Shown one piece after another: positions 8,301 through 52,269 of a stretch of 64,000 bases of DNA (positions are counted from its first letter, which is position 1; each line of letters opens with the position of its first letter). Position numbers and translations under genes: made by a program. Below the pieces are notes generated by a model that was given only the letters and a program-made list of their open reading frames with translations, had not been told where the DNA came from and did no database searches. Origin of the DNA: Periconia sp. R9002 (Eukaryota > Ascomycota > Dothideomycetes > Pleosporales > Periconiaceae); assembly GCA_023627715.1 (NCBI GenBank), contig JAMAHW010000100.1, positions 62,001 to 126,000 on the forward strand, in the 5' to 3' direction.

Positions 8301-8374
8301 GCCAAACACCCAGTATTCAGAGCATCTCAGCACCTGTCATGACCGAGAACTCTTTAGGATGGAAGCATCTCTAG
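5302..8374 (+). CDS. PigL_N - WW repeats - Ras-like domain fusion protein
   Basis: Three exons: 5302-5726, 5778-7572, 7634-8374 (986 aa). Residues 1 to about 145 match the fungal STAND/NLR N-terminal domain (PigL_N type, opening [13 protein letters not shown]). A long low-complexity linker follows, then four WW-like units (about 504-530, 551-582, 583-614, 615-645), an Ala/Glu/Lys-rich stretch near 670-685, and a Ras-family domain (about 733-915). The Ras switch II motif [11 protein letters not shown] is intact. The P-loop reads GAGGVDKTS, with Asp743 where Ras has Gly15, and the G4 motif is NHCE (844-847) instead of NKxD. The tail is basic and has no CAAX box. WW domains normally bind proline-rich peptides and PigL_N domains sit on fungal NLR-like proteins, so a scaffold or sensor with a degenerate GTPase module is my inference. 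Domain calls are confident; function is not known. Confidence 0.85.
6973..7197 (+). repeat. 96-bp tandem repeat encoding WW units
   Basis: Copies at 6973-7068 and 7069-7164 differ at only four positions, all transitions. A third, diverged partial copy starts at 7165. The unit is 32 codons, so the duplication keeps frame and adds one WW unit. The near identity points to a recent duplication or gene conversion. Confidence 0.9.
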
Positions 8375-17610: not shown

Positions 17611-18417
17611 TCAACCGCTGGCGATTAGAGGCAGCCTCTTCATGTACCTGATAACATAATGTCCCCATTTGTCTTCCGTGACCCCCTCTTCAGTTGCCTC
17701 AAGCGCTTTTGCCCACTTGACCCCAGGTGGTTGGGGCGCGTACTCATCCAAGTCAAGGTCTAATTCCTTGACTACCTGATATCCAAATTTTGCATATGCT
17801 TTCCATGCCTGATCAGACGAGTGCACCCAGGTGAAGATACCAAGGCGGTCTGCTATGTCGGCGCCGTAATTGATGAGTGCACTGCCGACACCACGGGATT
17901 GATGCGATGGAGCGACAATGAGGCCGATTACAAACATACACGACGTGCCAGGAGGCATTAACTCAGACATCATATGCTGCATATCGGCGTCTTCAAGCGC
18001 ATGAAGACGGTTGATGCCATTTTCTTTGACCGGTTCGCCTTTTTGATCGTTGTTTTCTTCTTTTCTCTCTTCGTCTTTCTCTTGTTCTGCATGCTGCTCT
18101 GGCATCGGCGCCATATCACTCGGTCCCTGCCGCGGTATCTTGGACACGTCGACGCCCCTGAACCCCCAGCCCGCATGGCCCACAATCTCACCTGATTCCT
18201 CGTCTACAGCTTTGACGTATACATAAGTGTCCCGATGAAGGGTCGCGAGAAACCCATCTCGAGACACTTCATACATCACGAATGGCTGGGAACCAAGCTG
18301 TTTCACTATCGTGTGTCTATCTGTTGAGAAGGCTTTGGCAGTAATTTGCGCACAAGCCGGAATGTCTTTGTATTGTAGAGGTTGAATCGACAGTGGCACT
18401 GAGTTGTTTTCCGCCAT
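17611..18417 (-). CDS. GNAT-family N-acetyltransferase
   Basis: The frame gives 268 aa from ATG at 18417 (MAENNSVPLSI). It could extend in frame to ATG 18471, and an open frame without ATG runs to 18642. The acetyl-CoA signature lies in VIGLIVAPSHQSRGVGSALINYG (the Q/R-x-x-G-x-G/A core is QSRGVGSA), preceded by a beta strand and followed by the usual 'AYAKFGYQ' segment. The insert between about residues 105 and 155 is acidic and lysine-rich and low in complexity. This type is common in ascomycetes and acylates small molecules or proteins; the substrate cannot be read from sequence. It sits 1.3 kb left of the first UstYa-like gene, so a tailoring role is possible but unsupported. Confidence 0.8.
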   Translation of the reverse strand: MAENNSVPLSIQPLQYKDIPACAQITAKAFSTDRHTIVKQLGSQPFVMYEVSRDGFLATLHRDTYVYVKAVDEESGEIVGHAGWGFRGVDVSKIPRQGPSDMAPMPEQHAEQEKDEERKEENNDQKGEPVKENGINRLHALEDADMQHMMSELMPPGTSCMFVIGLIVAPSHQSRGVGSALINYGADIADRLGIFTWVHSSDQAWKAYAKFGYQVVKELDLDLDEYAPQPPGVKWAKALEATEEGVTEDKWGHYVIRYMKRLPLIASG

Positions 18418-19763
18418 GATAGCAGCACAACAGCGACGATGTTCGGCGAACCTGTTCGCAAACGTTATCATGGGTGAGGGAAACACCGTAAACCGCTGCC
18501 TGGTGACGAACTTGAGTAAAACCGCTCTTGATTTGAGCAAGTATGTTTTTCCGTTACTAAATGCACTTGAGTCTACTTGATCTCGGGGAAAGTAACTGTG
18601 GGATTGTCGGCGACTTTCTCGAGGAGCACTCGCGGGGGGCAAGCTGTACCTTGGATCAATCCAAGTCGGGTTGCTTTCGCAGCTGTTGCAAGTCCTGACG
18701 AGTCAAGCTGGGCTAATCATCAAATGACCTAGATAAAAATTAGCGTTACATTACCATACTACTTCGCATTGACGGCAGATGCTGTGCACAAAGTACAGCG
18801 CTGTGTGGGGTCAGTGTAGAGGCGGTGAATTCACCCCGCAAAGTCATTATGGGGCAGCTGAAACATACTCTTCGGGCCTATCACCTTCCCGGAAGCATGT
18901 TGGCTGCGAGCAGGGGTCTTTCAAAATTGGTCTTGGGTCCGGGGAGGGTTGCCACGGGTGGTAAGGTGCACCTCGAGGTTCGTTGGCATCAACTGGTCAC
19001 GTGCACCATGCTTTGCTTACCTGCATTTACAAACCACGCTAATGCCGCAACACGTTACGATTCCTTATTAAGCTTTTTAGCATCCTGATCGTCCGCCAAA
19101 TTTACTCTTATCTTATTGCCCTAAACCTTGCGTTATGTCCCCAACAGGATCTACGGGTGTCAGCGGCTGATATGCAGATGCATGTCGGTTTACGGATGTC
19201 TGAGCGTTTTGCATAATGATACCATCTGCTCTACTTGTGGCGACGTGCAGCAAGATAGAGCGTGGTAAAAGTACAGGCATGTTGATGCAGTGCACTTGTA
19301 TTCACTCGCGGTTTCGCCCTAATCTCCAGTCAGACAAACTAGCGTGCAGATATGCTATGACGGCGTTTGGCATGCCGTTGACAATTGCGAGTGCAAGCTA
19401 CTCTTCGTTGGCTACTGAGACGGTTCACGTGGGTTCCTATGCTTGTTCATCAGGACTGGCTGTCGGCCGGGCAGAATGTGGTTTCGCTTGCAGCGACCGG
19501 CGTTGCGAGGATTATGCGAACAAGGAATCGTTCAATACAGCGGACCCATGCAAGTTAGACAAATAGTCAAAGTATTGTGATCAGTCACATCGGTTTCTAT
19601 AGGATTGAGTCACGAGGTAGCCTGGCAGCTGTTAAAGAATCGTGGAAGGGGTTAAAGCTTTTCCCACCTTTCTTTTCGTTTCGATTCCATTGACTCCCCT
19701 CTAACCAAAAAATCTGAATCTGTGGAAGAAGAATTTTATAAATCATCAGTTTTCAAAATCAAC
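18418..19763. other. Intergenic, divergent
   Basis: Region between the GNAT gene (minus) and the first UstYa-like gene (plus). A TATAAA lies about 25 bp before the ATG at 19764. The open frames at 18825-19088 and 19216-19566 show no recognisable domain, signal peptide or splice partners and were not called. Confidence 0.45.
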
Positions 19764-20453
19764 ATGCCTGCTGAGAAGACCATCTACCAAAGAGTGTAAG
19801 CCTTCACGTTAGAAATCGCACAATGCTCGTTTCACTAAGCTCAGTATAGCCCAGACGAGGAAACTGCGTCTTCTGACCATCTCCTACAAGAGATCTCTGT
19901 TTCTCTTGTCCCGGAGTCAAAATGGCGCAAGGCAAAACATCTTGCAGGCAAAGCCATAGTCTTGGCTCTTGTTACGTGGGGCATCGTCAGTCTCGTGCTC
20001 CAAGCCTATATCAGCATCAAATCCCACAAGAAGATATCTTGTGACTGCGGTGCTAGCATCGCCGAAGCTTTGACTCTCGACTGCAAATACGACACAATGG
20101 CTGCGGCATGGTTGCCTCCAGCTTGCCGTGATGATGAATTGAGCGCCGAATTCGACCGCAACGGTCCTGGTCCAAACGGCCAGTGGTACTACTGGTCCGA
20201 TCCGCACCGCAAGCACGAACTTACTCTAACGGAGCTTGCTAATCTTGCGGATACGGGAGAGCCATTCTTCACTGAATGGGCGTGGCATGTTGCCCATTGC
20301 ACTTACTACTGGCGCAAGCAGGATAGGGGCAAGGCGTACATGGATTCTGCGGATTTGTATGGCCACATTGTGCATTGCGAGGAGGTCATCTTCAGCGATA
20401 GAGAGGCCACAATCATGTCCGGCATTGGGTTGAACAAGACCTCTTTTCAGTGA
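19764..20453 (+). CDS. UstYa-like membrane oxidase 1 (divergent subtype)
   Basis: Two exons: 19764-19795 and 19850-20453 (211 aa). It has a short N-terminal tail, one transmembrane helix (about residues 46-66), then a luminal domain with paired motifs HVAHC (about 158) and HIVHC (about 185), the hallmark of UstYa/DUF3328 proteins. It shares with the genes at 23.2 and 24.1 kb a pattern CDCG-x5-A...C.YD..A.AWLP..CRDDEL that canonical UstYa proteins lack. In ustiloxin, phomopsin and asperipin pathways these copper-type oxidases are implicated in oxidative cyclisation of the peptide core. This gene marks the left edge of the cluster and converges with the MFS gene. The small first exon is supported by splice signals and frame only. 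Confidence 0.82.
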
Positions 20454-20826
20454 CGTAAGTGGCGTCTTTGGTAGATCTAAGGGGGTCCATATATGAGTCG
20501 TTGTGCACAATGTCGATTTTCTTTTCCGCTGCCAGCATGTTAACTTCGACATCTCCCGTAGCTTCACCTATCGTTGAATAAATCAACTCTTGTTTCCGCA
20601 ATGCATGATTTATCAAGGTAGATTCTTTGTGACTTACCGATTTCAAGATAATCGACATCTGATTCTTCTTTGTGCAATCGCAAAGCCCCGTCAACTTACG
20701 GATAAAAGAGCCTCCAGGGATACAAAAACATACTTCAGAGTCAATTGCTAGATCAATGAACAAAAGAGTCCCAAATCTGTAGCAGCAATAAAATTTTTGC
20801 TCTGAATTCCTGAGATTGCAAAGGCA
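20454..20826. other. Short convergent spacer
   Basis: 3' ends of UstYa-like gene 1 (plus) and the MFS gene (minus). No feature seen. Confidence 0.4.
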
Positions 20827-22465
20827 CTATCTAGCTAGGAATCTGCTCGCTGTATACGCTGCCATCAAAGATGAAAATGCGCTCTGCAGAAATACCCAAT
20901 GCAGGCTTCGTGCACTTCCTGAAACATGCACGAGAGATAGAACTATGCTGCTTAGAATTGCAGACAGTATCTGCGGCGCAGATATGGCTGCATTGTGTAA
21001 TCCCATGACTGATGCCGAAGTAGTACAGTCCAAGCTCAACCCGTCTGTCTTTTCCTCGTCGGCTTCCTTACTCTCAGCAAGCTCAGTCCCAATAATGGCA
21101 TAAGGGGTCCACACTGTGAAGGCCCACGATATACCTGCCACTGCCACAACTATTGTACCACCGGTGCTAGTTGTGACCCATTGAGTGCTTATCATAAGGG
21201 TAGCCAACAGAATCTGAGACGCCGCCCAAAGCCGGGACATGATCAAAGTCCATTGCACCTTCGATTGTAGGGGATCAACGGCTCTCCCGATAAGATGTGA
21301 TAAGACCAGATTTGTCACTAAGGACACTACAGCAAAATTTAGACTCCCAAAAGTACCCAAATAAGTAGCCTTCTTTCGAATGAGATTTTCTGCCTCAGGA
21401 TTAACGCTGGGAGCGGCCTTATAGATGGATTCAGTGTAAAGCTCGGCGATATACCTTTACATTCTCTTTAGCTTCAATGAAAAATGCATACGAAGAGAAC
21501 TCAGAACCTACGTTGTGGAGTAATAGAGAAATGGGAACCATCCCATCCACGACCAAAACTGTACGTAGAGGACCTGCCTTATCTTCCTCGGAACCCGTGT
21601 CCATGTGCGTCGTAGATGATGAATCATGGATTCAATCGATTTTGTGGATCCCATCTGTACACTTTGGGATAAGGTTTTCTCCTCCAGACGCCAACAAGTC
21701 CAGCCGATAGAAACCATCAGTGCAGCAGACGCCAATAAGCACAAAAATTGAAATTGTGATGTGTTTGGTAATCTAAACCAATCCACGAGTGACATTGATC
21801 CTGCGATGTAACCAAAGATGTTACCGACACCCGCCATGTAGCTGGCCCATGCGTTTACCCGGGCCTGTTGGTGAGCAGGACAGTTGTCCACGATCATTGC
21901 TCTCAAAGCGACTTGAACAGTCGCGACGGCGATATTGAGGCAGTAAACGAAGACTACTGCTAGGACGATAGCCAATTTCTCAACAGACCTCGGTGGAAGT
22001 GACGAGCAAGTATCGAAACAACCGGAAACTGTTTGAGCCAGCTCTTTAGATCTTGATAGAGCGATGATTGCTGTGACTGTGGCTATGGTTCCCACAATAG
22101 CGAAAGGACGACGTCGACCCCATCGACTGTGACAATGATCGCTGTAGACTCCAATGACAGGCTGAACGATAAGACCACATAGCGGAGCAGCTAGCCAGAC
22201 AAGCGGGGTCCAAGATTTTGCAAGACCCAAGGAGATGAGAAAAGGCTGGGGTGTTCATGTCAATTACTGTGAGAAAGAAGACTCAGATATACGTACAGCG
22301 CCGTTTGAAAGTACAACTGACCAGACTACCTGCAGCCTAACACGCAATTCAGTCAATGCATTTATGTTTTGAAGTGAAGAACACTCACCCTCCAAGACCA
22401 CACGTCAAAGCGAATAGATTCTTCTTATACATGAAACGTTGACTTTCTACACCATTCGAGTACAT
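20827..22465 (-). CDS. MFS transporter (GPH/sucrose-transporter-like)
   Basis: Four exons, 5' to 3': 22389-22465, 22297-22336, 21512-22245, 20827-21454 (492 aa). Hydrophobic throughout, fitting about 12 transmembrane helices. The motif SRWGRRRPF after helix 2-3 and the overall layout resemble the sucrose/alpha-glucoside H+ symporter (SLC45/GPH) group rather than the drug-export DHA families. It lies inside the RiPP-like cluster between UstYa-like genes 1 and 2, and diverges from gene 2 across 741 bp. Export of the cyclic peptide is the natural hypothesis, as with transporters in the phomopsin cluster, but the family resemblance is to sugar importers, so this is open. Confidence 0.85.
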
Positions 22466-23206
22466 TTTGTGGCTAGCAGGAAGAATCTGCTGGCTGATAA
22501 GCAATAACAATGATAATCAATCACTACTGATGTTTTGAAAATTTTGACTGGTGTACATTGAGCGAGATTGTTGATTGAGAGAGTTTCGATAGATTGGCCA
22601 GCTAGTGCACAGGTGTTGTGAAGCTTTAGGAAGAGTCACTGCGTAGCTAGTAGCACGCTTCTGAATATTGCATCCCGGACGTTCTGCATCTTCCCCCCCC
22701 TCTTTTCGTCAGCAACTCGGTTCCGTAGAAGCTAGACCCAAGTAACACACTCGTGCATCCGCCACCCGCTGAGATACCCTGCACGGCCCAAGCGTTTTGC
22801 ATAACCCCATTTTTTTATACCCTGACGGTCTACCGCACAAAGCTGGTCACAGGGTCCACAGAACTATACGAGGAAATCAGCCGGATGCATTCAGCTTTTA
22901 AGTCTCGGGCCGAAAAGAAGTTCGCGAAATGTTTAGCTACTATGGTATGTTCAGGCCTAGGTGGGACTTGATCAGCCAAACTGTTATGCATGTTAATCAG
23001 AAAATACCAATAAGGTTATGCTATACGATGGGGATGATGCTTTGTATGTCGACCTTCTTCTTCTGGATCAGCGTGAATTGCTCGCTGAATGTTGTGTAGC
23101 GACCATCTATCCGACAAACCGCGACCCCCAAACACAGGGAGGGACTCATTCCCCCTTTACTCTTCTTTTCAAACTCCCCAGAAACTCCTCCATATTTGCA
23201 AGCCCT
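22466..23206. other. Divergent promoter region, MFS / UstYa-like 2
   Basis: 741 bp between two divergent starts, probably a shared promoter. No specific operator motif identified. Confidence 0.4.
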
Positions 23207-23926
23207 ATGTCTCCACCAATTATACCTGATACGAGCACCCACGATCTGGAGATTATGGAACACGATGAAGAGAAGAGTCTTCTACATATGCGTCCCAAAA
23301 ACTTGGACCAGAAGTCAAAGAAAGGCTGGATCTTTATTGCAATTCAAGCTTTACTGCTGGCCATTGGCGTCATGGTATTGATAATGATCGCCCGACTTGT
23401 TCATCGGTTGGAAGACTCCCTCAGTTCCACTCGTTATCCATCACTAGAGCTTCGAAAGGATCCATGCGGTCAGACACCAGCAGCAGCAAGAGCGGCAGGA
23501 TGCACTTTCGATCTCGGTACCGCAGCATGGCTTCCACCGGATTGTTTTGATGAGGAACTCCACGCTGAATTCATGTCACAAGGCCCATGGAAATTCTATC
23601 ACAATACATCCGACTTCGTATGCGGCGAGGATTGTCTCACGTATCCCGAACCATCTCAGCTTGTGCCATTGGAGACAATGGATGATATCAGTGGATATCT
23701 TAGTTATTTCGTATGGACGGACCGACGATATCATGTGTCTCACTGTATGTACGCCTGGAAGCTGATGCATCGTCAAATGGAGAAAGGAAGGAAGATGGAT
23801 CAGATTTTGATTAGCTGGCACCATACAGCACATTGTGTGGATTCGATGAATAGGACGTACATGTCGCCAGAGGTACCATTGGAAAAGGTCATGACAGCGG
23901 TTGCTATAAGTTTTCCCAATTGTTGA
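23207..23926 (+). CDS. UstYa-like membrane oxidase 2 (divergent subtype)
   Basis: Single exon, 239 aa from ATG at 23207; the open frame continues upstream without another credible ATG. One transmembrane helix (about residues 43-65) follows a charged N-terminal tail. The luminal part shows DPCGQTPAAARAAGCTFD, then AAWLPPDCFDEELHAEF, HVSHC and HTAHC with the spacing of the paired HxxHC motifs. It belongs to the same subtype as genes 1 and 3, though with a variant N-terminal cysteine pattern. Likely an ER/Golgi oxidase acting on the processed peptide, inferred from the family. It converges with gene 3 at 24128, 200 bp away. Confidence 0.82.
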   Translation: MSPPIIPDTSTHDLEIMEHDEEKSLLHMRPKNLDQKSKKGWIFIAIQALLLAIGVMVLIMIARLVHRLEDSLSSTRYPSLELRKDPCGQTPAAARAAGCTFDLGTAAWLPPDCFDEELHAEFMSQGPWKFYHNTSDFVCGEDCLTYPEPSQLVPLETMDDISGYLSYFVWTDRRYHVSHCMYAWKLMHRQMEKGRKMDQILISWHHTAHCVDSMNRTYMSPEVPLEKVMTAVAISFPNC

Positions 23927-24127
23927 AAGATTGTCAAATCGTTTAAGACGCTTCCTCATTCGATCCAAGCTATGGAATTCAAGCTCGTGTAGTATAGGCG
24001 TTGGTCTGAATAGGCATCGCAAATATACAATATACACTGGTTGCAGCTGCATCAAAGTTCAATGCATTGACTTTCAGTATTCCACTTCCGTTGAGTAAGT
24101 ACATAACAAGACTATGAGAACAACCCT

Positions 24128-24808
24128 TCACTCAGCGACTGTCTCATCATCGAACAAATCCGAATTCAATCCCGCAGTAGATTTTGTGTTGATCTCATGT
24201 AGTGGACGACAGCTCTTCAAAACATCCTCGCAATGATTGACATGATATTCTCCTGTGAAGCTCTGCTCAAGAGCAGTTTTACCGCTTACCCTAGCCCGCG
24301 ATTCTTTTCTCCAGTAAAATAAGCAATGAGCAATGTGCCATTCATGAGTTGTCCAAAACGAAGCTTCGTCGCCCTCTTTCTCTGCTAACATTGCCACTTC
24401 TTCCAAGGTCCACGTATCGTTTCCTGACTGAGTTTTAAAGTAGTCCCATTCGCCGTTGTCCCCGGGTCCGGCGTGATTGAATTGGTCGATAAGCTCATCG
24501 TCTCTGCAAGCGGCAGGAAGCCATGAGGTAGCCATTGGATCGTATTTGCAACCCTTCGATAAGGCTTCTTGAATTGAGCCCCCGCAATTGCAATCAACCA
24601 CGCCGTTACTGGTGGCAGTCGACAGTACAAGCAGGCGAATGATTGTGATTATTCCAATGCCGCAAAGAAAAACCAGGACTGTCCTCCAAATAATTGTGTA
24701 GAAGTTTGACCATCTACGCTTGGGCTGCAAATTGATATCATCTAGAGTTGAGCCCTCTGTTTGAGCCAGGTACTGGTAGCCGGTTTGCTGTTGTTTTGTA
24801 GCCAGCAT
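24128..24808 (-). CDS. UstYa-like membrane oxidase 3 (divergent subtype)
   Basis: Single exon, 226 aa. A transmembrane segment at about 40-62 (TVLVFLCGIGIITIIRLLVL) is followed by VDCNCGGSIQEALSKGCKYDPMA, SWLPAACRDDEL, then HIAHC and HVNHC. The close resemblance to gene 1 (CDCG/CNCG, CRDDEL, G-W-Y/D-Y block, H-x-A-H-C-x-x-Y-W-R-K) suggests a local duplication followed by inversion. Its 5' side faces UstYa-like gene 4 across a 735-bp divergent spacer. Confidence 0.85.
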   Translation of the reverse strand: MLATKQQQTGYQYLAQTEGSTLDDINLQPKRRWSNFYTIIWRTVLVFLCGIGIITIIRLLVLSTATSNGVVDCNCGGSIQEALSKGCKYDPMATSWLPAACRDDELIDQFNHAGPGDNGEWDYFKTQSGNDTWTLEEVAMLAEKEGDEASFWTTHEWHIAHCLFYWRKESRARVSGKTALEQSFTGEYHVNHCEDVLKSCRPLHEINTKSTAGLNSDLFDDETVAE

Positions 24809-25543
24809 GATGTGTACGAAGATTACCGGGCCTTGCAGCTGGTCAGAAGTAGACTAAAAGACTTTAAGGACAACTAAAGCGTTGAAAAAAGTTTCGTTGG
24901 CGATTGAATGGAAGTCAAAGAAAAGTCTGATGGACCTGCCCAAGAGAACGAGAGGGGGTACGCGAGACTACCTGAAAACTTTGGACTTCAACCACGGTAA
25001 CTCAGCCGCTTCCAATTCGGAATAGGTAGTTCAGAACTATACTAGATGAAAGTCAAATGATATTGCATGCTTCCTATCAAAGGCAAGTGTTGTGTTGCCG
25101 CATCATCTTAACAAATCAAGGTTCGTGGTACTGGTTAGGGATAGATAAAATGCAGATCGTTTCAATAGTCACATCTGGTTTGCAGCTCATGCAATACCCA
25201 TGTCTTTGTGTAGCTGGTGTTGATTACTATGCGCATGTCGCCTCACAATGCCGTGAGTGCATATGCAAGATGCTGATCTTGCATTAGTGCACGCGTTCGG
25301 CTACAAAGCTCCAGCTACCGATACAACTACCTAGGTATGTTAAGATGTGGACTTAGCTAGCTTGAAGATCACAAGACCTGTTTTTCGAACAGATGTACGT
25401 GTACTTGCAGCCCGGTTCGCTTCAGATCTGCGTTGGGAATCAGCCGCGATATCGGAACCGATTTTCCAGTACCAACATACTCCCGTCTTCAAGCAACAGG
25501 ACAACTTCTCACTTTGCATCCATTCACAATTGCTGTCGCCCCA
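24809..25543. other. Divergent promoter region, UstYa-like 3 / 4
   Basis: 735 bp between divergent starts at 24808 and 25544. Probably regulatory. Small frame 25057-25287 has no support. Confidence 0.4.
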
Positions 25544-26396
25544 ATGCTTGAATCACTTCCCGAACATGAGGTACCCTTTCTACCAAAGGACCACACTTTC
25601 ATACCAGCCTCAAAGGCTGCTGAAAAAAAATTGCACAAGACATCTCGGCGGACGCTACTCGTTGTAGCAGTCATCAGTGCGATTGTTTCGACGATTGCCA
25701 CAATTTCACTGCATAGCTTTTTATCGGCTCATTTGACTACCTCATTGAAGACGTCTTCCTTGGTACATGAGTCTTTGCCATCTTTATCCGTTCCGCCTCT
25801 GGGAAGTGTGCTTCGAACATACATACCTGAGCCGCAATATGTGGCCCAGAACTTGAATGAGAGTCACGATGCTTGGATGTCGCTATTTCCCAGTAAGAGA
25901 TCAACACCTCAACGCCAGACTAGGCTAACCTGATGAAGAGGGCATGGGCTATGTATCGATGGACAAGATTGGGTCTGAGGGCCCCGTTCCTCAAATTCTT
26001 CAGGACATGAGTACAGATGGCTCTGGAAGATTCTGTGTGGCAGGATTTCACCAGCTGCATTGTCTGGTGAGTGCCATTACCTTTCGCAGGTACCCCCAAA
26101 TTATTGACGATATCAAGTACCTCATTTACGCCGACTTCCGTCGTGCGCTCAGCGGGGATATCCAAGAGTCGGATATGCACACGCTGCACTGCTTTGACTA
26201 TCTTCGTGAAAGTATCATCTGCGCTGCAGATAGTGCATTGGAGCCGTTCCGTTCTCCTTTCGACGGTGGTACTGGTGGAGATGGGATTGATGGATTTGGG
26301 AGTCTACATCAATGTCGTGATTTTAAGCAGCTTTTTCAGTGGAGTGAGCGTTTTCGATATAATGATGAACATGACGCCGAAAGATTTGAAGGATAG
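25544..26396 (+). CDS. UstYa-family oxidase 4 (canonical DUF3328)
   Basis: Three exons: 25544-25892, 25939-26066, 26118-26396 (251 aa). A cytosolic N-terminus and one transmembrane helix (about 37-58) are followed by the canonical UstYa blocks: SLFPKGMGYVSM (across intron 1), AGFHQLHCLYLI (across intron 2) and HTLHCFDYLRESIICAAD. The two HxxHC motifs are intact. Intron 2 (51 nt) is a multiple of three, so an unspliced reading stays open; splicing it restores the usual HQLHCLYLI run. It converges with the precursor gene, ending 590 bp from its stop codon. Confidence 0.88.
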
Positions 26397-26985
26397 AATA
26401 TATAGGCTGATTATCAAATTGAAGACTTTTCGTCCTTTCCTGCTGCTCGTAGATGCGAAATCCTCCATATATCTTCGTTGCCTTACCTGAAGTACATTAC
26501 GGGCTTTGGCTATGCTTGAAATATGGTGTTAATCGAACTTTTTACTTTTAAAATACGTTAAACATCCTCTTAACGTAGCTTCTACGGGCGTTTTGCATAC
26601 GATCTAGACGTGAATTCCTGTCAGACAACAATCCTAGGGTGTGTCAAGCCCCGTAATACACACGTGAAAACCAGAAGATCGCGAGATTGTCCCACGATAT
26701 CTGTCAAAATCTTGACAAAGTCCTGAATGGGTGATTATATATCTGTGGTTGAAGATCACAGTAGAAAGTCTCACACACGTTTCACGAATTGATATCAATC
26801 AAAGAATTCACCAGTTCCAATATTGCCTAAGCTATTGATAAAGAGTGACATTTAGAAACAGCTATTAGCTAGCAGATGACCCTGTATCCATCCTATGTGA
26901 CCTGCTCCAGCCACAATGTCTACCTAAATGACCGACGACGATCAGTTCCCACCCTTCATACATTGCTTGCCCAAGTTGTGCCAAA
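26397..26985. other. Convergent spacer before precursor gene
   Basis: 589 bp between the 3' ends of UstYa-family gene 4 and the repeat-peptide precursor. No feature seen. Confidence 0.4.
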
Positions 26986-27594
26986 TCAATCAGTATCTCC
27001 TGGATATCTAACTCCAGGGTAGGAGTTAGTTCGCTTTGTGACCTCGTCTGCGTCACCTGGATACTTCACACCTGGGTAGATATTGGTACGTTTGGCAACG
27101 TCGTCGGCATCTCCAGGATATTTGACCCCTGGGTAGATGTTCGTTCGTTTAGCAATGTCGTCGACATCTCCAGGATATCTTACTCCAGGGTAGGAGTTGG
27201 TTCGCTTTGTGACTTGGTCTGCGTCACCTGGATATTTGACTCCTGGGTAAATGTTCGTTCGCTTGGCAATGTCGTCGACATCTCCAGGGTACCTAACTCC
27301 AGGATAGGAGTTGGTCCGTTTGGCAATCTCATCAGTATCACCTGGATATCTGACTCCAGGATAAGAGTTGGTACGTTTGGCAATGTCGTCGGCATCTCCA
27401 GGGTATTTCACTCCTGGGTAGATGTTGGTACGTTTGGCGACCTCATCTGCATCCCCAGGGTATTTCACACCCGGGTAGATATTGGTAGGAGTGCGTTCTT
27501 TCAAGTCACTATGACCGCCTTCGTGAGGAAGAGGGGCAGCAGTAGCCAACGCAAGCAAAGAAGCAACGAGAAGAGTGGTGCTCAACTGAACCAT
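26986..27594 (-). CDS. Kex2-processed repeat precursor peptide (candidate RiPP, dikaritin type)
   Basis: Single exon, 202 aa from ATG at 27594. A signal peptide (MVQLSTTLLVASLLALATAAP) and a 15-residue leader are followed by nine head-to-tail repeats of 19 residues. The first eight end in Lys-Arg, the Kex2/KexB cleavage signal, and the ninth ends at the stop codon. Each unit has the invariant core Y-P-G-V-[K/R]-Y-P-G-D with variable acidic residues before KR. Five units read N-I-Y...V-K-Y and four read N-S-Y...V-R-Y. This is the architecture of UstA, PhomA and the asperipin precursor. Together with six neighbouring UstYa-like genes, it supports a ribosomally made peptide cut at KR and oxidatively cyclised at tyrosine. 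I do not recognise this core. A non-cyclised secreted Kex2 repeat peptide (KEP) such as a hydrophobin-like or pheromone-like product is the main alternative. Confidence 0.92.
   Translation of the reverse strand: MVQLSTTLLVASLLALATAAPLPHEGGHSDLKERTPTNIYPGVKYPGDADEVAKRTNIYPGVKYPGDADDIAKRTNSYPGVRYPGDTDEIAKRTNSYPGVRYPGDVDDIAKRTNIYPGVKYPGDADQVTKRTNSYPGVRYPGDVDDIAKRTNIYPGVKYPGDADDVAKRTNIYPGVKYPGDADEVTKRTNSYPGVRYPGDTD
26989..27486 (-). repeat. 57-bp tandem repeat, nine units
   Basis: Nine in-frame units make up most of the precursor gene; the last is cut short at 42 bp. Units differ mainly at third codon positions, at the I/S and K/R sites and in the acidic spacer, so protein sequence is more conserved than DNA. 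That indicates selection on the peptide rather than a neutral minisatellite. Confidence 0.92.
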
Positions 27595-28594
27595 GATGAA
27601 TACTGGCAAAGATCGTTGTCTTGGAGGAGTTTGATAGAATTTTAGTGTAGTTAAGAGGCATATTCACGGTCAAATGTCCTCAACTTAAACAGATTGAAAG
27701 GTCTGTCATGCCGGTATCGGGTGCTTCAGTCCATTACATGTCGAGCTACAAGGACAAAACTTCGACATCTTAGCATTGGTTTCACTAGGTCATTCTGCAC
27801 TAGATTATTTTGCGTCTGTTCTAGAGCCACTATCACGAGTGCTTCTTAGCGGTGACCGCTTCCTCCTGTTTCTATCCACGATCTGCATCAACAGGCTTTG
27901 CAGGCGATCTGTTGGAGTGGAAATATACTTGCACCTTCTGAATATGGTATGCGATAATCTTAGCCTACACGTATGAGCCATTCACAAGCGCAGAGAAGTC
28001 GATAACGTTTCCGAGCTGCAGCGTAAATCTACTGTAGTCCAGCTTGAGTGACTTGAGTTCCACCATAAAAGAGGATGTGATTACCTCAAAGGGGAAGGTA
28101 CAGAGATGCCAGGGTGAGGAACCTCAAATTTTGGTGACGTGAAGATCGCTGGCGACGATGCATGCCCCATGTAGTGTACATACGCGGTAAGCACTGTGGC
28201 CCTGCGCGCGACGCTACACAATCCTTGTTTCTAGTACCGTAAGCATGCATATGCAGCATCGTTGAGGCGGCCCCGCCCGGAAAGTGCAATGGCTAGACTC
28301 AAGGGCCCGCTTCTGCTGAATGCTTCTGCGCCTAGCAGTGTAACATACCCCGTTGAGTAATCACTTAGGACTGGGTTTAATTGCGCTAGAGCTGAGTCCT
28401 AATCCCCACTTTGATACGGTCAGCTGCGCCCACATGCATAATTGACGCTTTCAATTTTCCGGGGAAATATGAATCACATGCAGCAATTTCAAGTAGAATA
28501 GCAGTCTTCTGCTTCATTAGTCTTCTGTTATCACTGTCTTTCATATCTTCTTTGTACTTTGTCAGATTTGCATCAAACTTCAATCTTGCCAAAG
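27595..28594. other. Divergent region, precursor / UstYa-family 5
   Basis: 1.0 kb between the precursor start (minus) and UstYa-family gene 5 (plus), presumably holding both promoters. No gene recognised; short frame 27776-27976 was not supported. Confidence 0.4.
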
Positions 28595-29682
28595 ATGTTG
28601 CCTCTTTTCAACACACAGTATTCATCTGTCGCGTCGGACGATGCATCGTCGTCTCGGAATTCCTGTGATGACACCAGCCCTGAGAAAGGTTTACTTACCA
28701 ATGAACCTAAAATCAAAAGAATCACTAAAAGGACAACAATACGTGGGGCAATCTTCACAATCCTCATATGTCTACTTGCTACAAGCCATTTCGCGCTATG
28801 GATCTTAGGGCGCAGAAGCATTGACGTTGATCATTTATGTCTGCATCACACATCGACGTTTTGTAGGCTTTCCGAAAGCTTGTCAAATTTCACAGGGTTA
28901 TTGACAAGACGCAGCACCCGTACTTGAAGCTATGGAACCGAAATACAAAATGGTACAGTTCAATGGCACATTGGGTTATCCGTCTGAGTTCACCGGCGAC
29001 CCAAGCCCAGAATTGGATGCTGTTTGGGATCGATGGGGCTATGGTACGTCAACCCGAGCAGTTTAAACATGGGATAAGAAAATTTTATCTGACTCGAGTG
29101 AATAGTGAAGTATGCGAGTATTCCGGAAGAGACGTTCATGAAACTTCCTGGAGCAGACCCTGATGCTGCTCGCCTGACGCCGGAATACGGAGGCGGCTAT
29201 ATTGGCTTCCTAGAGGTCAGCCATCACATGCATGTAAGAACTCAAGCATAACATCCCAGTAACTGTATTCTGACTGCTACCAGTGCTTGAATATGCTACG
29301 TCAGGGCATTCATCAAGACTACTACAATAATCCCGAACACCCTGAGCGAATGGCACCTGTCTTCACAGACCGACCATATACGGTCAAAATACATCTGCGT
29401 AAGTTCGTTGACACAATTACAACCACCTAGCTAATATTTTCTTAAGAACACTGTATTGAGATCCTACGGCAAAACATCATGTGCAACGCGGATGTAGGAG
29501 TCATTCCCCACCAATGGATTACGGCAACGCCGGATCCATATGCGAACTTCAACACTTGGCACAAATGCAGGGATTTGAGTAGCGTAGAGAAATGGATCCA
29601 CGAGAATGAAATACCGGACACGCCTGATGGAAGTGATTTGCCGATTCCGCTCAACTCAAAGATCTTTGCGCAGCCACCCTGA
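28595..29682 (+). CDS. UstYa-family oxidase 5 (canonical DUF3328)
   Basis: Five exons: 28595-28862, 28915-29043, 29106-29233, 29284-29398, 29447-29682 (291 aa). The spliced product carries every block of the family in order: a transmembrane helix (about 48-70), HTSTFSPVLEAMEP, FNGTLGYPSEFTG, VWDRWGYVKYASIPEE, GGGYIGFLEVSHHMHC (first HxxHC), HLQHCIEILRQNIMC (second HxxHC) and a C-terminal HKCRD. Each motif is completed across a splice junction, which supports the exon model. It lies next to the precursor and diverges from it, so it is the best candidate for the core cyclase; that role is inferred from position. Confidence 0.9.
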
Positions 29683-30128
29683 TCAGGTTGCGAATGAATC
29701 TCCAATGCCTAGCTCGGAAGACAGTTTTAATCCTGCGCGATGAAACAAGGGAGAAAAATGGAGATAATGCTTTTAGCAGAAATATAGGCTGATCAGCGAA
29801 ATTCAAACGTCGTCATGTCTTCTTATATCAGTGAAATTCAGATGCCGTAGTGTCTTCTTATGCTGATACCTAAATTTGAAACGTTGAGAAAGCGATATTT
29901 TATCGTGCAACCCATTTATTGTGCAAGGCACCCCACTCGATACAGTGCTGCGTATTGGCGGTAAAGCGCGATAATACATTTTTAGCTTTCTGCAAAGTCA
30001 GCATGAACACTTGGGTGGCAGAAATGAGATATAAGAAGTGCTCGTCCAGCATTGAGGCTCCTCTCTTTTTTGCTCTGCTCAAATCTTTCGTCACCTGACC
30101 ACAGTCTTGGCACTCAAGATACCTACCC
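29683..30128. other. Spacer between UstYa-family 5 and 6
   Basis: 446 bp upstream of gene 6. It contains a short imperfect direct duplication near 29785-29865 (shared TCAGxGAAATTCA and GTxTCTTCTTAT blocks). No gene. Confidence 0.4.
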
Positions 30129-31022
30129 ATGTCTGCAACTCAATACCACGACGTCACCTCCTCGGAGTCGATTGGCTTGTTGGACGAAGAAGTTCCAGGG
30201 GACGAGAAACCGCGACTACGAAAAAAGTCATCATGTTTCTATCTGCTCTGGCTGTTACAACTCATATTCTTCACTACTTCCCTCACCTTTTTCTTCGCTG
30301 CGCTTTCACTGTCACATTCTTCACAGAAGACCAAAGAATGTGTGGGTCTTACTTACTTTGATGAACATGTGGATAATACATGGGAAGAGCGGCGGTTTGA
30401 AGATAGCCTTGATTCGATCTATCGTGGTCCGCCGAATCCGAGTGTTGATTTAGCGTGGCGCAGTTTGATAAACGGTATGCAGTTGAAAACGTCCAACACC
30501 GGCAGCCTAGCTAAAATCTTGAAGTAACACGGCACTCAATCACACTTGAGCAGATACGGGCCATTGGCGCACCGGAGTCATCAGTCAGGTTCCCCGAGAG
30601 AATGGGTGGAGGATATATGGCCAACACTGCCGTTTTTCACCAATTGCACTGTGTGGTAAGTTCCAAGACCGAAATTTTCTAGTTGGCCAGACTTTGACGT
30701 ATATCAGAACTTGCTATGGCAATATACGTATCGGGAATACTATGAACCACTAGAACCTATACTACAAGAGGGCGAAGAGAAAGTGCATCAGCATCTAGGT
30801 ATGAAGACTCCAAAACATCTTGATAAAAATACTTACACGAGTCCAGATCACTGCGCAGATATAGTTAGACAAGCCCTTATGTGCCACGCTGACACCAGCA
30901 CTCTGACCTATAGTTGGCCAGAACGCAAGGGTGATACGCTGAAAGAAAACCACAGTCTCCCACGAAAGTGCCGAAGATTCGATCTCATCATGGATTGGGC
31001 CAAGGAACGTGAAGTAGTCTGA
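30129..31022 (+). CDS. UstYa-family oxidase 6 (phase conflict, altered second motif)
   Basis: Exon blocks 30129-30474, 30554-30655, 30708-31022 (about 254 aa). The N-terminal transmembrane helix (about 37-60), YRGPPNPSVDLAWRSLI, GGGYMANTAVFHQLHCV, NLLWQYTYREYY and DHCADIVRQALMCHADTS identify the family. Two oddities are seen. First, joining block 1 to block 2 with the only good GT/AG pair leaves the frame one base off, although both sides are conserved. Second, the second HxxHC motif reads SPDHC, so its first histidine is missing. Either the gene is decaying, the sequence has an indel, or the enzyme works with a modified metal site. It is the right-hand member of the RiPP-like cluster. Confidence 0.75.
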
Positions 31023-31647: not shown

Positions 31648-33404
31648 TCAAACCTCCTCCCTCATAATTCCACCCCTCTTCGCCTTCCCAGTTTTACTAC
31701 TAACTCTCAGATTTCCCCTCTCGATACTTTTTACCGCTCGTTTCCGCAGTCCCTCTCTAATGTCCTCGATGCTTCGTTCGTTCCATACGGAATAGCCTTC
31801 ATTGCTCAGCGGGTGGAGGAGCTGGTTAGCAGGGTCGCAGATAAAAGTGTCGCTGGTCTTAGGCGTCGACGCAGCAATGATATTAATTTCCGCTTCGAGT
31901 TTATCACAAAAACTGTCGAGTGGGAGGTCATTGACGTCGTTGCCAAAAGGGTTCTCGAGCTCGGCGCCAATATAGGCAAAGCCTAGGATGATGTACGCTG
32001 CGACTGTCACGAGGGTTAGCAAGGTGTATTCTTTGCTGAGTTTTGGGAAGGGTGATTTACAAAGTGTGCCCGGAATCGCGATCATGCCTAGTCTGTTGTA
32101 GAGCTGAAACGGAAGGATTAAGATGTACACCCATGTAAGTTGTGAGATAGCGATGGTATATGCGAGAGGCAGGGGCGTGTTCAAAATCCTATCCGAGGTT
32201 TCTAGGATATCGTTCATGGTCGCAACGGCATTAACTATCAATCATAGCAAGTAAGCCAGGCGGATCATCATGGTATGATGAAGGAGACGGCTCGTTATGG
32301 TACTTACAGGAGTGAGTAGCGTAAAGGTTTCCCTTAATACCGCTGGCCGTGATGACCTCACGTAGGTATACGGCCAGGTGGTTCAATATCTCTAATGGTA
32401 GGTTGCCGAGTGGGTGTGTAGCCCGTTTAATAGTCTTTCGGGGGTTCGATATGGCAAAGGGGACACCAAGCTGCTCCCCTAGAGTCTTCCAAAAGCCCTT
32501 CTTGGAAGGCTGGTCGCGTTCTAGCTTGACCGCTGTAGCAGTTCTAGCGAAAGTGTCGAGATGAGGGATAAGTCCTTTAAGATCGGCATAGTCTGTATAG
32601 GGTTCGAAGCGGAGGCGGTGTTTGAGTGCGCGCGCGTATGCGACGATAAGATTCAAAGCAGTTCTGTCAAAACAGACATGTTAGACGCATTGGTTTACAA
32701 AAGATGCGGTTGAGTCATATGAGCGAGACGAACATCTTTCCAATCAAATCTTTTTTCTCACTTTCCTCCCTCTCTGCAACGTTGATCCAGATATGTCGCG
32801 CGAAATTATGCGATGTGTTCATTAGCAACGTCCACGCTCGCCTGCCCTCCATGTACCGCTCATACGCCGTCGTGCTGCGCACCGATAGTGACAATGCCAC
32901 AATAAACCCCAGAACAGTAAGTAGTGTAGGTCTAATAGAGACTGTCGAGGAAGACACGCACACATGCGTGAGCACCGGTCAGTGGAACTCTCGTGACAAT
33001 GTCATCTTTACAGATTTCACTCACCATCTTTCACGTGTCGCATGAACATACAAACGCCCACTGTCCAGAACACCACGACAATCAAAGGAAGAATCAAGCT
33101 TGGGAGGCAGCTTCCGTGAATCCGGAGCATCATTGGCCATTTTGAGTGACGATCAAGCTCACGCGGACCGAGCTGGAGGAAGGGGTCTGTTAGCTATTAT
33201 CGTGGCAACGGGAACATGTATAGCACGCACAAAGTATTCGTCAAACTGGTGACTCTGGAAACTGCGGTGTTTTTCGTGGGAAGAAGACGGTATGAATGAT
33301 TCAAAGTGACGGGGCGTGCTAGATCGCGACCCGAGTTTGTAGTCGTCTATCGAATCCCTACTTTCGTCCTTTTCCACGAACAGTGAGTGACGCACCGTGT
33401 CCAT
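31648..33404 (-). CDS. Bestrophin/UPF0187-family anion channel
   Basis: Five exons, 5' to 3': 33231-33404, 33025-33172, 32734-32941, 32308-32663, 31648-32234 (490 aa). Family blocks seen include FDEYFLGPREL, SVRSTTAYERYMEGRRAW, GKITALNLIVAYARALKHRLRFEPYTDY, a helix pair around the TIAISQLTWVYILILPFQLY segment, and ENPFGNDVNDLPLD near the end of the membrane domain. These proteins are fungal relatives of bestrophin Cl-/HCO3- channels. The C-terminus is basic and probably cytosolic. The exon 3-4 junction uses a weak GTTCGT donor but restores GKITALNL. A housekeeping-type gene separating the two biosynthetic clusters. Confidence 0.88.
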
Positions 33405-37957: not shown

Positions 37958-40900
37958 TCAAGCCGGAGCAAGCAGCTTGCTCTTCTCTGCCAAATTCTGG
38001 GCCAATTGCGTCATGGGCACATTTTGCATAATGTCAAATACCGAGCACTCGACCGCCATCTCACGGGCAATCCAATTTCTCACCTCGACAGCCACCAGAC
38101 TATCAACACCGTACGCGCTCAGGGGCCGACCCGCGTCAATGTCGGCTTCGGGCGTCATCATTAGGCTGGCAAGGCGCTGCACCATTGCTTCCGTGATGAG
38201 CTGCACAGCTTTCTCGCTAACGGTTCCGCACCGCGTTAGCTCTTCACGAAGTGAGATGGCCTGTCCAGCAATGGCCGAGGAACCGGCCCCAAGGTTTCGC
38301 AGGCCCGCAAAACGCGCATCGGCTATCCAGTACCAGGCGTCATCGTGCTCGTTAAAAGGCAGACCGCACATGACTTGAGCTGGGTGGTGCGAGGGACCTT
38401 CGATGGCGGTTGCCATGAGACCATGCAAGTCCGATGTATGCATGACCTTCAGCCCCATAGCCTTGACGTGGTCGACATACTCATCGTGCTCAGCTACAAA
38501 TCCAACTGACAACAGGTAGCCAATGTCGATAGTCAGTGCCGGCAGACCTTGACTACGTCGGAATGCAGCAAATTCGTCTTGGAAGTTGTTACCACATCCA
38601 TAGTTACCCTGTCCTCGGTGACCCATGACGCCGGCTAGTGAAGACAGCATGACAAAAAAGTCCATGTCGCGTGGTAGAAGTTCGTGCAGGTTCCATGTTC
38701 CATGAACTTTTGGACCGACCGTTGTACGGACATCTTCTGCCGTCATTTTATCAAAGAGACGGTCCTTAAGTACCATGGCGCCAGTTGCACATCCTTTGAT
38801 AGGTGGCAAACCTCTGGCCTTGAGGTCATCGAGAACTGTTTGTAAGTCGTCCTTGTTGCCAACATCGCAGTCATAAGCCAGTGGCGTAACGTTATATATC
38901 TTTTGCAGTTCCGAAGCAAACTCTTTGTTGCTTGCACTGCTCGCTGCGGAGCGGGAGAGCAACACCAGATTCTTTGCGCCCTTGACTGCCAACCAGCGCG
39001 CAATTTCACGAGTGATGCCTCCCAGTCCTACGAGCACATACGTAGCGTTGGGGTGGATATGCCCACGGGGAATTCGAGGTACAGCGCGAACAGTGTCTGC
39101 ATCATCAACTCGAATAATCACTTTGCCCATGTGCTTGCCAGCCTGCATGTGACGAAAGGCCTTTTCGACTTCAGCCATGGTGAAGATTTGGAGTGGCGCA
39201 ATAGGCTTGATTGCTCCTTCGTGGATCATTTTCGCTGTATCTTGCCAGAGCGCAACAGCCCGAGGCGTTGGATTGTTTTCAAAGTCAAGCAAATTGACAC
39301 CGATATAGCTCTTGTTATCCAACAGAGGCTTCATATCGAGTCCTGTGTTGGCGAACAGGTCTGCCTTTCCAATCTCCAGGAACCGACCAAACTTGGCAAG
39401 ACAGTCAGTCCACGACAGACGGAGGGCTTCGCCAGCTAGCGAGTTCAGGACTACGTCCACACCCTGACCATCGGTAGCACGCAGCACACCCTTGACAAAA
39501 CTGGTGTCGCGGCTGCTGAAGATGTGATCCTCGGGAATGCCGTACTGCTCCACTAGAAGCCGTTGTTTTGCGTCTGCGCCAACTGTAGCAAAGATTTCCG
39601 CGCCCTTGGCTTGGGCAATCATAATGGCGGCTTGTCCAACACCACCAGCGGCAGCATGAATCAATATCTTCTCGCCAGCAATCAGACCGCCAGCTGTAAT
39701 CAGGGCGTAGTAGGCAGTGAGAAAGATTAGGGGCATCGAGGCGGCTTCTTCAAAGCTCATACCCGAAGGAATGGATATGGCGCCCTTGGCTGGAAAGCGA
39801 ACGTAGGTGGCGAAGGTGTCGCAGGATGCAGTCATTACTTTGTCGCCAACCTTGAAGTTTGTGACAGCAGATCCAACGCGGGTCACTATACCAGAGGCAT
39901 CGACACCTAGCTTGTTCTCGGCCAGGTTTCCCAGCGCAACGAGTACATCCTTGAAGTTGAGACCGACGGCTTTGACTTCAATCTCAATCCAATCCTCGGG
40001 TAGCGGCGTGTGAGAGGTCTCATCCTCCTTCCATTGGAATGTGTCGAGCAGCCCAGGTGTCTTGATTGTCAGTTTGAGAGGACGTCCGCAGCCCTTGAAC
40101 GAGACCATCTCGGGCTCACCTTTGGCCTCATACTTGCGCAATAATGCGTCGAGTTCCAGCGTTCGTTCAACACGGGGTACATAGACCTTGTCTTTACGCG
40201 CAGCGAACTCACTCTCTGTGCCATCGCCGCGGATGTGCGCTCGAGCGACTTTGAGGGTAGCCTGAGATGCCAGTTGGAAGTCAATTGTGGATGGTGATTC
40301 TAGATCGAGACAGGCGAGGCGAACACCGGCGTCTTCGTTTCGGATTGCTCTTGCGAGTCCGACCATCAAACTCTTCATGGGTTGAGGTGTGTCAAACGCA
40401 CCACCGCCAGTGATCCACAACGCGCCCTCAGACGACAGCACAACCTCGCGCAGTCTGTCCCAATCTTCATTAGTAAGATTCGCGAGGATGCCGTCTTCCC
40501 ATTCAGCCAGGCAAAGGCAGTATTTGCCTTCCACATGCGCCTTGGTAACACCACTCCATTCAGTAATACTGATCTGGTGCCCAGCGGACGTGAATGTGTT
40601 TTGAATAGCACTGGCAAGCTTGTCAGATACTTCGGTTCCAGTAGTGATGACAAGGCAGGGAGACAGATTGGGAACTTTTGTCTCGGGCTTGGTTGAGATG
40701 ATCAGTGAGACCGGCTCCTTCGAAGTGTCTCTGTCACCACGAATATCAACATCAACGCCAGAAAATCCTGCCTTGCTCAGTGCGGCATCCCACTCTTCGA
40801 CATCCAAGAGCGGACCTCCTGTCCTACCATCTGCCTCACCTAGCCACCAACCGGGCAGCGGACCCATGATGAAGCCTGAGAAGATGCGCTTGATGGTGAC

Positions 40901-51886: not shown

Positions 51887-52269
51887 CCACATAATTTTAC
51901 TTGTGTTTTTGAATAATCGATGCTCGGATATGTAGGAGTCAGTGGTTGCTAGGCATTTCGATGTTGTGTAAAGTCCGCGAATTAGATCTAGCCGTGACAA
52001 CAACCGTGATGATTCTGTCCCACAAATGAATTTGATATTGAATAGATCTACATATTAGCCGATAACAACTAGTCAGTAATGGTTATCGTACGAGGAAATC
52101 CGATTGTGGGTTCAGATAGAACAAGCATTAAGCCCCCAGCCTAGAATAGTGGACGTGGGCCAAGGGCTGTATCTTAGAATAGGCAAAGCGACTATTATTT
52201 AAACTAAAACGAGACGCTTTTGTGCGGCACAAGTACATCTTCAAATTCTTCAACAACACACCACCAAAC
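51887..52269. other. Spacer between the two P450 genes
   Basis: 383 bp, AT-rich, upstream of the second P450. Nothing specific seen. Confidence 0.4.

What the first reader, a model, noticed from the sequence alone, without database searches (positions are those of the whole stretch)
19764..31022. Candidate new RiPP (dikaritin-type) cluster: nine-repeat precursor plus six UstYa-like oxidases and a transporter
The sequence shows a secreted precursor with nine 19-residue repeats (eight ending in KR), six single-pass membrane proteins with UstYa-type HxxHC motifs (the second motif altered in one), and an MFS transporter within 11.3 kb. This gene set is established for ustiloxin, phomopsin and asperipin pathways. 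The core Y-P-G-V-[K/R]-Y-P-G-D, with two tyrosines per unit, is not one I recognise, and six oxidases is a large number. Inference: a cyclic peptide closed through tyrosine ether or C-C bonds.
Basis: partly seen in the sequence, partly recalled or inferred. Interest (0 to 1): 0.93.

Follow-up and report, generated by a model that had tools for sequence, protein, structure and literature searches.

The report
Fungal cross-linked-peptide gene cluster, six oxidases
A fungus, probably a Periconia relative, carries an 11-kb gene set that very likely makes a small secreted ribosomal peptide chemically modified at tyrosines, and half of its copper-type oxidases belong to a family that Pfam does not name.

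Summary
In detail: a 202-residue secreted precursor with nine 19-residue Kex2-type repeats (eight end in KR), six single-pass proteins with two HxxHC motifs each, and an MFS transporter within 11.3 kb. One detail is wrong: the 'altered' motif of the sixth oxidase is a 48-nt in-frame intron read as coding; spliced, it reads HLDHC, as in four of five homologues (the fifth is annotated unspliced too). The synteny test largely passes. Contig lengths and locus tags place orthologues together in Periconia macrospinosa (three oxidases), Kalmusia (two), Aspergillus tanneri (two) and A. alliaceus (precursor homologue and one oxidase). The repeats differ at about 73% of synonymous sites but hardly in the core, so the peptide is under selection. 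A. alliaceus keeps TNIYPGV but not the second tyrosine. Only three oxidases are UstYa by Pfam; the other three belong to a Pfam-silent sister family (WLPxxCxD plus two HxxHC) found beside Kex2-repeat frames at three of its four loci in this genome. Best reading: a UstY-dependent RiPP cluster, asperipin-like in logic (no tyrosinase, methyltransferase or peptidase among its genes), using two oxidase families. Product and chemistry are inferred, not shown.

The parts
19764..20453 (+). Oxidase A (211 aa; exons 19764-19795, 19850-20453): one TM, HVAHC and HIVHC; Pfam-silent WLPxxCxD family
   Evidence: 51% to A. tanneri P0015
20827..22465 (-). MFS transporter, nearest the GPH/sucrose-proton symporter type (several exons; not all junctions settled; C-terminal half assigned by position only)
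   Evidence: MFS_1 1.9e-10 and MFS_2 1.4e-9 for 21511-22254; TIGR01301 5.7e-32, below that model's own cut-off; start codon and first junctions
23207..23926 (+). Oxidase C (239 aa, single exon): one TM, HVSHC and HTAHC; divergent member of the Pfam-silent family
   Evidence: 136 of 137 residues identical to the partial P. macrospinosa protein P0024
24128..24808 (-). Oxidase D (226 aa, single exon): one TM, HIAHC and HVNHC; Pfam-silent family
   Evidence: AF2 model mean pLDDT 87.8 with the motifs on two helices
25544..26396 (+). Oxidase E (268 aa; exons 25544-25892, 25939-26396): UstYa, HQLHC and HTLHC
   Evidence: PF11807 1.1e-24, gene model
26986..27594 (-). RiPP precursor (202 aa): signal-like segment, short leader, nine repeats TN[I/S]YPGV[K/R]YPGDxDxxxKR
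   Evidence: homologue P0001 in A. alliaceus
26989..27486 (-). Repeat array: five units of NIYPGVKYPGDA type, four of NSYPGVRYPGD[T/V] type; the last unit ends before KR
28595..29682 (+). Oxidase G (291 aa; exons 28595-28862, 28915-29043, 29106-29233, 29284-29398, 29447-29682): UstYa, HHMHC and HLQHC
   Evidence: PF11807 1.3e-51, gene model
30129..31022 (+). Oxidase H (247 aa; exons 30129-30474, 30525-30655, 30708-30798, 30847-31022): UstYa, HQLHC and HLDHC
   Evidence: PF11807 8.4e-49, gene model, orthologues
30799..30846 (+). 48-nt intron, in frame and without a stop, that made the second motif of H look altered

Best explanation
This is a biosynthetic gene cluster for a ribosomal, post-translationally modified secreted peptide of the UstY-dependent fungal kind. 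Shown by sequence: a precursor with a signal-like start and nine repeat units (eight closed by KR) under purifying selection, six proteins with one membrane segment and the two HxxHC motifs of the binuclear copper site known from CctR, and a transporter; members of the set are co-conserved in other fungi. Inferred: the precursor enters the secretory pathway; the oxidases, anchored with their catalytic domain in the Golgi lumen, use copper and O2 to oxidise the core; Kex2 cuts after KR and carboxypeptidase removes the basic pair, giving 17-residue or shorter peptides. Most likely chemistry: the first tyrosine (T-N-[I/S]-Y-P-G-V, kept in A. alliaceus) is tied to a neighbouring aliphatic carbon, Val of Y-P-G-V being the best candidate by analogy with the tyrosine-to-isoleucine links of dikaritins (PMC9233826 passage). 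The second tyrosine (K/R-Y-P-G) serves a second, lineage-specific ring or modification. Two related products are expected, because the repeats are of two types.
For: Array and selection: proportion of synonymous differences 0.72-0.79, nonsynonymous 0.031 in YPGV..YPG, 0.061 in residues 1-12, 0.22 in the linker, 0 in KR. The search with H found five homologues among 150 candidates, four of them these; the fifth is a lichen fungus (the query was H read through its third intron). Two HxxHC and one TM in 6 of 6. CctR, a DUF3328 protein, needs copper at HxxHC(x)nHxxHC, is O2-dependent and dimeric (PMC12435403). 22% of 7878 surveyed KEPs lie near DUF3328 genes and 65.6% of the repeats of those contain tyrosine (PMC7329392).
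Against: No product, expression or mutant data. The precursor was found in only one other species (A. alliaceus); P. macrospinosa, Kalmusia and A. tanneri gave no precursor hit (perhaps not annotated), so precursor-oxidase linkage outside this genome rests on one species. The annotated A. tanneri H homologue P0126 lacks the first HxxHC (possibly a wrong gene model). No tyrosinase, methyltransferase or peptidase is among the eight genes. The division of labour among six oxidases is unknown, and three of them are UstYa relatives only by remote similarity.
Confidence: 0.82

Rival explanations
1. UstY-type RiPP cluster, but the oxidases mainly hydroxylate, desaturate or halogenate residues instead of closing a tyrosine ring.
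For: DUF3328 members are implicated in hydroxylation, halogenation, macrocyclisation and isomerisation (PMC12435403). Six oxidases are more than two rings need. The second tyrosine is not conserved in A. alliaceus.
Against: [quoted passage not shown] all nine repeats keep both tyrosines at near-saturated synonymous divergence.
Confidence: 0.22
2. The precursor gives linear secreted peptides (pheromone- or hormone-like) and the neighbouring oxidases serve something else.
For: The same review literature notes that dikaritin precursors resemble alpha-factor precursors in being multi-core and Kex2-processed (PMC9233826 passage).
Against: In the KEP survey almost all pheromone-type KEPs (three exceptions) lack DUF3328 genes nearby (PMC7329392 abstract). 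Here the precursor lies among six HxxHC genes, and precursor plus H share a contig in A. alliaceus. The core lacks the W-rich, GQPC-ending type of filamentous alpha pheromones (recalled).
Confidence: 0.05
3. A, C and D are not oxidases but accessory proteins (partners, chaperones, copper or substrate delivery) for the three true UstYa enzymes.
For: They fall below the Pfam UstYa cut-off; CctR is a dimer and its authors hypothesise an accessory electron or copper donor (PMC12435403); no solved structure matches.
Against: Two HxxHC motifs are kept in 111 of 120 listed family hits; in the 57 rows that I chose for an alignment the four histidines are invariant and the cysteines invariant or nearly so; the profile match to UstYa places both motifs in register and beats 100 of 100 shuffles. 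At C47 a family member stands near a KEP with no PF11807 match listed within 200 kb.
Confidence: 0.2
4. The cluster is decaying and makes nothing.
For: H appears to lack a motif histidine when read without splicing (finding).
Against: That is an intron. All six oxidases have open frames after splicing and intact motifs; repeats are under purifying selection; C is 136/137 identical to P. macrospinosa over the partial record.
Confidence: 0.03

Closest known systems
Asperipin-2a cluster (Aspergillus flavus)
   Same: KEP precursor with tyrosine-rich core and a UstY oxidase; lacks a peptidase gene (PMC12048977 passage); tyrosinase is named as required only for ustiloxins and phomopsins; a transporter (recalled)
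   Different: One DUF3328 oxidase there against six HxxHC proteins of two families here; unrelated core (FYYTGY, recalled, against TN[I/S]YPGV[K/R]YPGD)
Phomopsin cluster
   Same: KEP precursor with several UstY oxidases (five)
   Different: Needs a tyrosinase, absent here; different core
Ustiloxin B cluster
   Same: Signal-peptide KEP precursor and UstYa/UstYb oxidases
   Different: Two DUF3328 proteins, a tyrosinase and an N-methyltransferase there; neither of the latter among the genes here
Epichloecyclin (gigA)
   Same: Multi-core Kex2 precursor with core variants and a UstYa-like cyclase (PMC9233826 and PMC8982410 passages)
   Different: Different product core (nonapeptides) and gene set
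CctR (cyclochlorotine hydroxylase)
   Same: Single N-terminal TM helix, lumenal helical domain, HxxHC(x)nHxxHC copper site (PMC12435403 parts 1-2 of 3)
   Different: Acts on a nonribosomal peptide; A, C and D here are not PF11807 by score

Membership tests
Dikaritin / UstY-dependent fungal RiPP | Precursor with signal peptide and repeated Kex2-delimited cores | tested here: met
   Nine repeats, eight KR, selected core; the signal peptide was judged by eye, no predictor was run
Dikaritin / UstY-dependent fungal RiPP | DUF3328/UstYa proteins with two HxxHC motifs (class-defining enzyme as cited in PMC12048977) | tested here: met
   E, G, H far above cut-off, two motifs in 6 of 6
Dikaritin sensu Ding 2015 (as cited in PMC12048977) | Tyrosinase gene | tested here: not met
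   32 PF00264 matches in the genome, none on contig C100
Dikaritin sensu Ding 2015 (as cited in PMC12048977) | Methyltransferase gene | tested here: not met
   No methyltransferase match among the eight cluster genes; in the neighbours scanned, such a domain lies only inside the PKS at 37958-41623
Dikaritin / UstY-dependent fungal RiPP | Transporter or peptidase | tested here: met
   MFS transporter present; no peptidase match among the eight genes
Dikaritin / UstY-dependent fungal RiPP | Oxidatively cyclised product through tyrosine | not testable with these tools
   Needs LC-MS/MS or in vitro assay
UstYa family PF11807 (for A, C, D) | Score above Pfam gathering cut-off | tested here: not met
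   A no UstYa match, C and D 12 bits against 25; of the relatives scanned P0007, P0015 and the C136 protein get none and P0035 gets 19 bits; 0 of the 120 listed relatives carry a precomputed Pfam domain
UstYa family PF11807 (for A, C, D) | Remote homology with both HxxHC in register | tested here: met
   hhalign E 2.1e-4, probability only 46%; rerun on trimmed alignments: score 39.6, probability 67%, against a maximum of 25.9 in 100 shuffles of the lumenal columns and 15.7 reversed
UstYa family PF11807 (for A, C, D) | TM helix plus lumenal helical domain with one HxxHC on each of two helices (as in the published CctR model) | tested here: met
   AF2 model of D: TM helix 32-65, motifs 158-162 and 189-193 on helices 155-175 and 187-198, block pLDDT 92-98 there; monomer only, not superposed on a UstYa model
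UstYa family PF11807 (for A, C, D) | Binuclear copper binding and O2-dependent oxidation | not testable with these tools
   Needs protein
Alpha-pheromone-type KEP | No DUF3328 genes nearby (true of almost all in PMC7329392) | tested here: not met
   Three PF11807 genes within 4 kb

The most novel reading that the evidence does not exclude
The WLPxxCxD/HxxHC proteins (A, C, D and relatives in Aspergillus, Colletotrichum, Fusarium, Metarhizium and others) are a second family of binuclear-copper peptide oxidases dedicated to Kex2-repeat precursors. Because no Pfam model finds them, many fungal RiPP clusters stay hidden from DUF3328-based mining; in this cluster both families act on one peptide.
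Probability: 0.45. Interest if true: 0.75.

Novelty: new variant of a known kind. Interest (0 to 1): 0.6.

Why it matters
It gives a testable new RiPP with a precise core and expected masses. It also points to a Pfam-silent family of HxxHC proteins that sits beside Kex2-repeat frames in this genome and may let one find clusters that DUF3328-based rules miss. It further shows how a short in-frame intron can fake loss of a catalytic histidine in this family, also in one public annotation (P0122).

Tried and rejected

Whether the second motif of H marks a non-catalytic partner: rejected after splicing and orthologue comparison.

Whether the precursor has paralogues in the genome: one match only, itself.

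Whether the Pfam-silent family goes with KEPs more than UstYa loci do: 3 of 4 loci against 2 of 20, Fisher p 0.018. This is weak: small numbers; 12 of the 32 other UstYa loci (my grouping) were not fetched; C100 and C136 also hold UstYa and were counted on one side only; C100 was scanned as the whole window and C136 as two stretches, the rest as one; the C105 stretch ends at a contig end; the scan sees only repeats within one open frame.

Literature: ten searches listed no paper whose title or abstract start describes this cluster, a Pfam-silent UstY-like family or a KEP fused to an HxxHC protein. None of the ten used the letters of the core; 'YPG' was looked for only in the main text of PMC7329392 (no occurrence). 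The searches cover open-licence PMC papers only; PMC12143957 on a copper-dependent DUF3328 cyclase is not held, and no supplements were read. Read: PMC7329392 outline with abstract, section 7 and passages; PMC12435403 parts 1-2 of 3; PMC12048977, PMC9233826, PMC12186524, PMC12871659, PMC11109268 and PMC8982410 passages only.
Full report
What is there. The window is a piece of a 42.9-Mb fungal assembly. Its nearest named relative at this locus is Periconia macrospinosa (Pleosporales), so the host is probably Periconia or a close relative; this is inferred from a few proteins, not from markers. Between 19764 and 31022 lie eight genes: HxxHC proteins A, C, D, E, G and H, an MFS transporter, and a repeat-protein gene. 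The flanking genes look unrelated: a GNAT acetyltransferase at 17611-18702 and a bestrophin at 31648-32241.

Precursor. The 202-residue product starts with a hydrophobic signal-like segment (judged by eye) and carries nine 19-residue units, TN[I/S]YPGV[K/R]YPGDxDxxxKR; the ninth stops after 14 residues. Two core types occur without mixing: I at position 3 always goes with K at 8 (5 units), S with R (4 units) (Fisher p 0.008; the units are related by duplication, so this is not independent evidence). Between units the proportion of synonymous differences is about 0.73, near saturation, whereas nonsynonymous differences are 0.031 in positions 4-11, 0.061 in 1-12, 0.22 in the linker and none in KR. 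The array is therefore old, and its core and cleavage sites are maintained. No paralogue was found in the genome. The only database relative found is A. alliaceus ETB97_011436 (113 aa), with three TNIYPGVGLAG units, one of them a full 19-residue unit TNIYPGVGLAGEENEHAKR, the first longer and the last cut short: TNIYPGV, the second G, an acidic residue and KR are kept, the second tyrosine is not. The search scored only the 7991 candidates sharing most words.

Oxidases. All six have one N-terminal hydrophobic segment and two HxxHC motifs. E, G and H are UstYa (PF11807). The motif is intact. One homologue, P0126, lacks the first motif as annotated.

The second family. A, C and D share C.CG or CG, EA or AA, C[K/T][Y/F]D, WLPxxCxDxEL, W and two HxxHC. 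A profile search gave 123 relatives, 120 listed, from many ascomycetes: 120 of 120 have WLPxxCxD, 111 of 120 have two HxxHC, and none has a precomputed Pfam domain. Profile comparison with UstYa aligns about 96 columns, both motifs in register (E 2.1e-4, probability 46%); in my rerun the score is 39.6 against at most 25.9 in 100 shuffles of the lumenal columns and 15.7 reversed. An AF2 model of D (mean pLDDT 87.8) has a TM helix and the two motifs on two helices of the following domain, the arrangement described for the CctR model (PMC12435403). In this genome searches with D, C, A and the C47 member agree on six members at four loci: C100 (three), C136, C47, C105 (the search with A does not reach C105; such counts are lower bounds). 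A KR-repeat frame lies in the fetched stretch at C100, C136 and C47, not at C105. At C47 no PF11807 match was listed within 200 kb.

Synteny. Contig length and locus tag serve as a proxy for neighbourhood. P. macrospinosa contig 279770: C, D, H. Kalmusia sp. contig 3928139: D N0V90_004077, H N0V90_004082. A. tanneri contig 18344: D EYZ11_011054, H EYZ11_011052; an A-type protein is in another assembly of that species (P0015, 51% to A). A. alliaceus contig 310319: precursor ETB97_011436, H ETB97_011438. H had five homologues among 150 candidates; the fifth is from the lichen fungus Lobaria immixta. The P. macrospinosa tags do not look positional, so only co-residence on 280 kb is shown there. 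The precursor itself was found outside this genome only in A. alliaceus. E, G and the transporter were not searched outside this genome.

Gene count. The survey in PMC7329392 reports on average 1.7 DUF3328 genes per KEP that has any, and 1, 2 and 5 for asperipin-2a, ustiloxins and phomopsins (section 7). Six HxxHC proteins is high, but only three would be counted by Pfam.

How it most likely works. Shown: architecture, selection, co-conservation. Inferred from CctR and from characterised UstY RiPPs: copper- and O2-dependent oxidation in the Golgi lumen, Kex2 cutting, export. Inferred with least support: the bond. The conserved Y-P-G-V favours Tyr-to-Val or a neighbouring aliphatic carbon; the second tyrosine would be a lineage-specific second site. 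No tyrosinase is on the contig, and no methyltransferase or peptidase is among the eight genes, so the logic is closest to asperipin-2a. What the product does is unknown; dikaritins are predominantly mycotoxins (PMC12048977 passage), which is no evidence about this one.

Verdict. A real, conserved, very probably functional UstY-dependent RiPP cluster, plus a Pfam-silent sister family of UstYa. The core is not one of the published cores that I can recall, but no literature search used its letters. It is a new variant of a known kind. The interest lies more in the second oxidase family than in one more KEP, since thousands of KEPs are known (PMC7329392 abstract).

Noticed in passing
L016:3950-4942(-), own genome C136: One open frame holds five repeats (DAPWYRDSAAS..., four ending in KR) followed by a C-terminal part with two HxxHC motifs (HQYHC, HVIHC): a possible precursor fused to its own oxidase; Pfam gives no significant family. 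A D-type protein (7587-8309 +) and a UstYa match (about 6136-6312 -) lie beside it.
   Followed up: partly
L018:2002-2475(-) and 3828-4544(+), own genome C47: A KEP with five QHM[V/I]DPP repeats lies 1.3 kb from a Pfam-silent HxxHC protein (HYEHC, HLEHC), with no PF11807 match listed within 200 kb: a possible RiPP cluster without classical UstYa.
   Followed up: partly
L023:2793-3002(-) and L020:5047-5406(-), own genome C75 and C60: Two further KEP-like repeat frames beside UstYa genes: AYPESYKR repeats and DITYIDK repeats.
   Followed up: no
window 37958-55772: A separate highly reducing PKS region: PKS frames 37958-44485 (only 37961-41623 was scanned), FAD-binding frame 48642-49103 with an adjoining one at 47763-48620, two P450 frames 51074-53883, Sulfotransfer_4 protein 54903-55772.
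   Followed up: partly
P0009, P0012 (Colletotrichum): Proteins that seem to hold two consecutive domains of the Pfam-silent HxxHC family in one chain (by eye).
   Followed up: no
window 29792-29861: Tandem duplication of a 35-bp unit just downstream of oxidase G.
   Followed up: no
window 6973-7208: 96-bp tandem repeat inside an open frame, encoding WW-domain-like units by eye.
   Followed up: no
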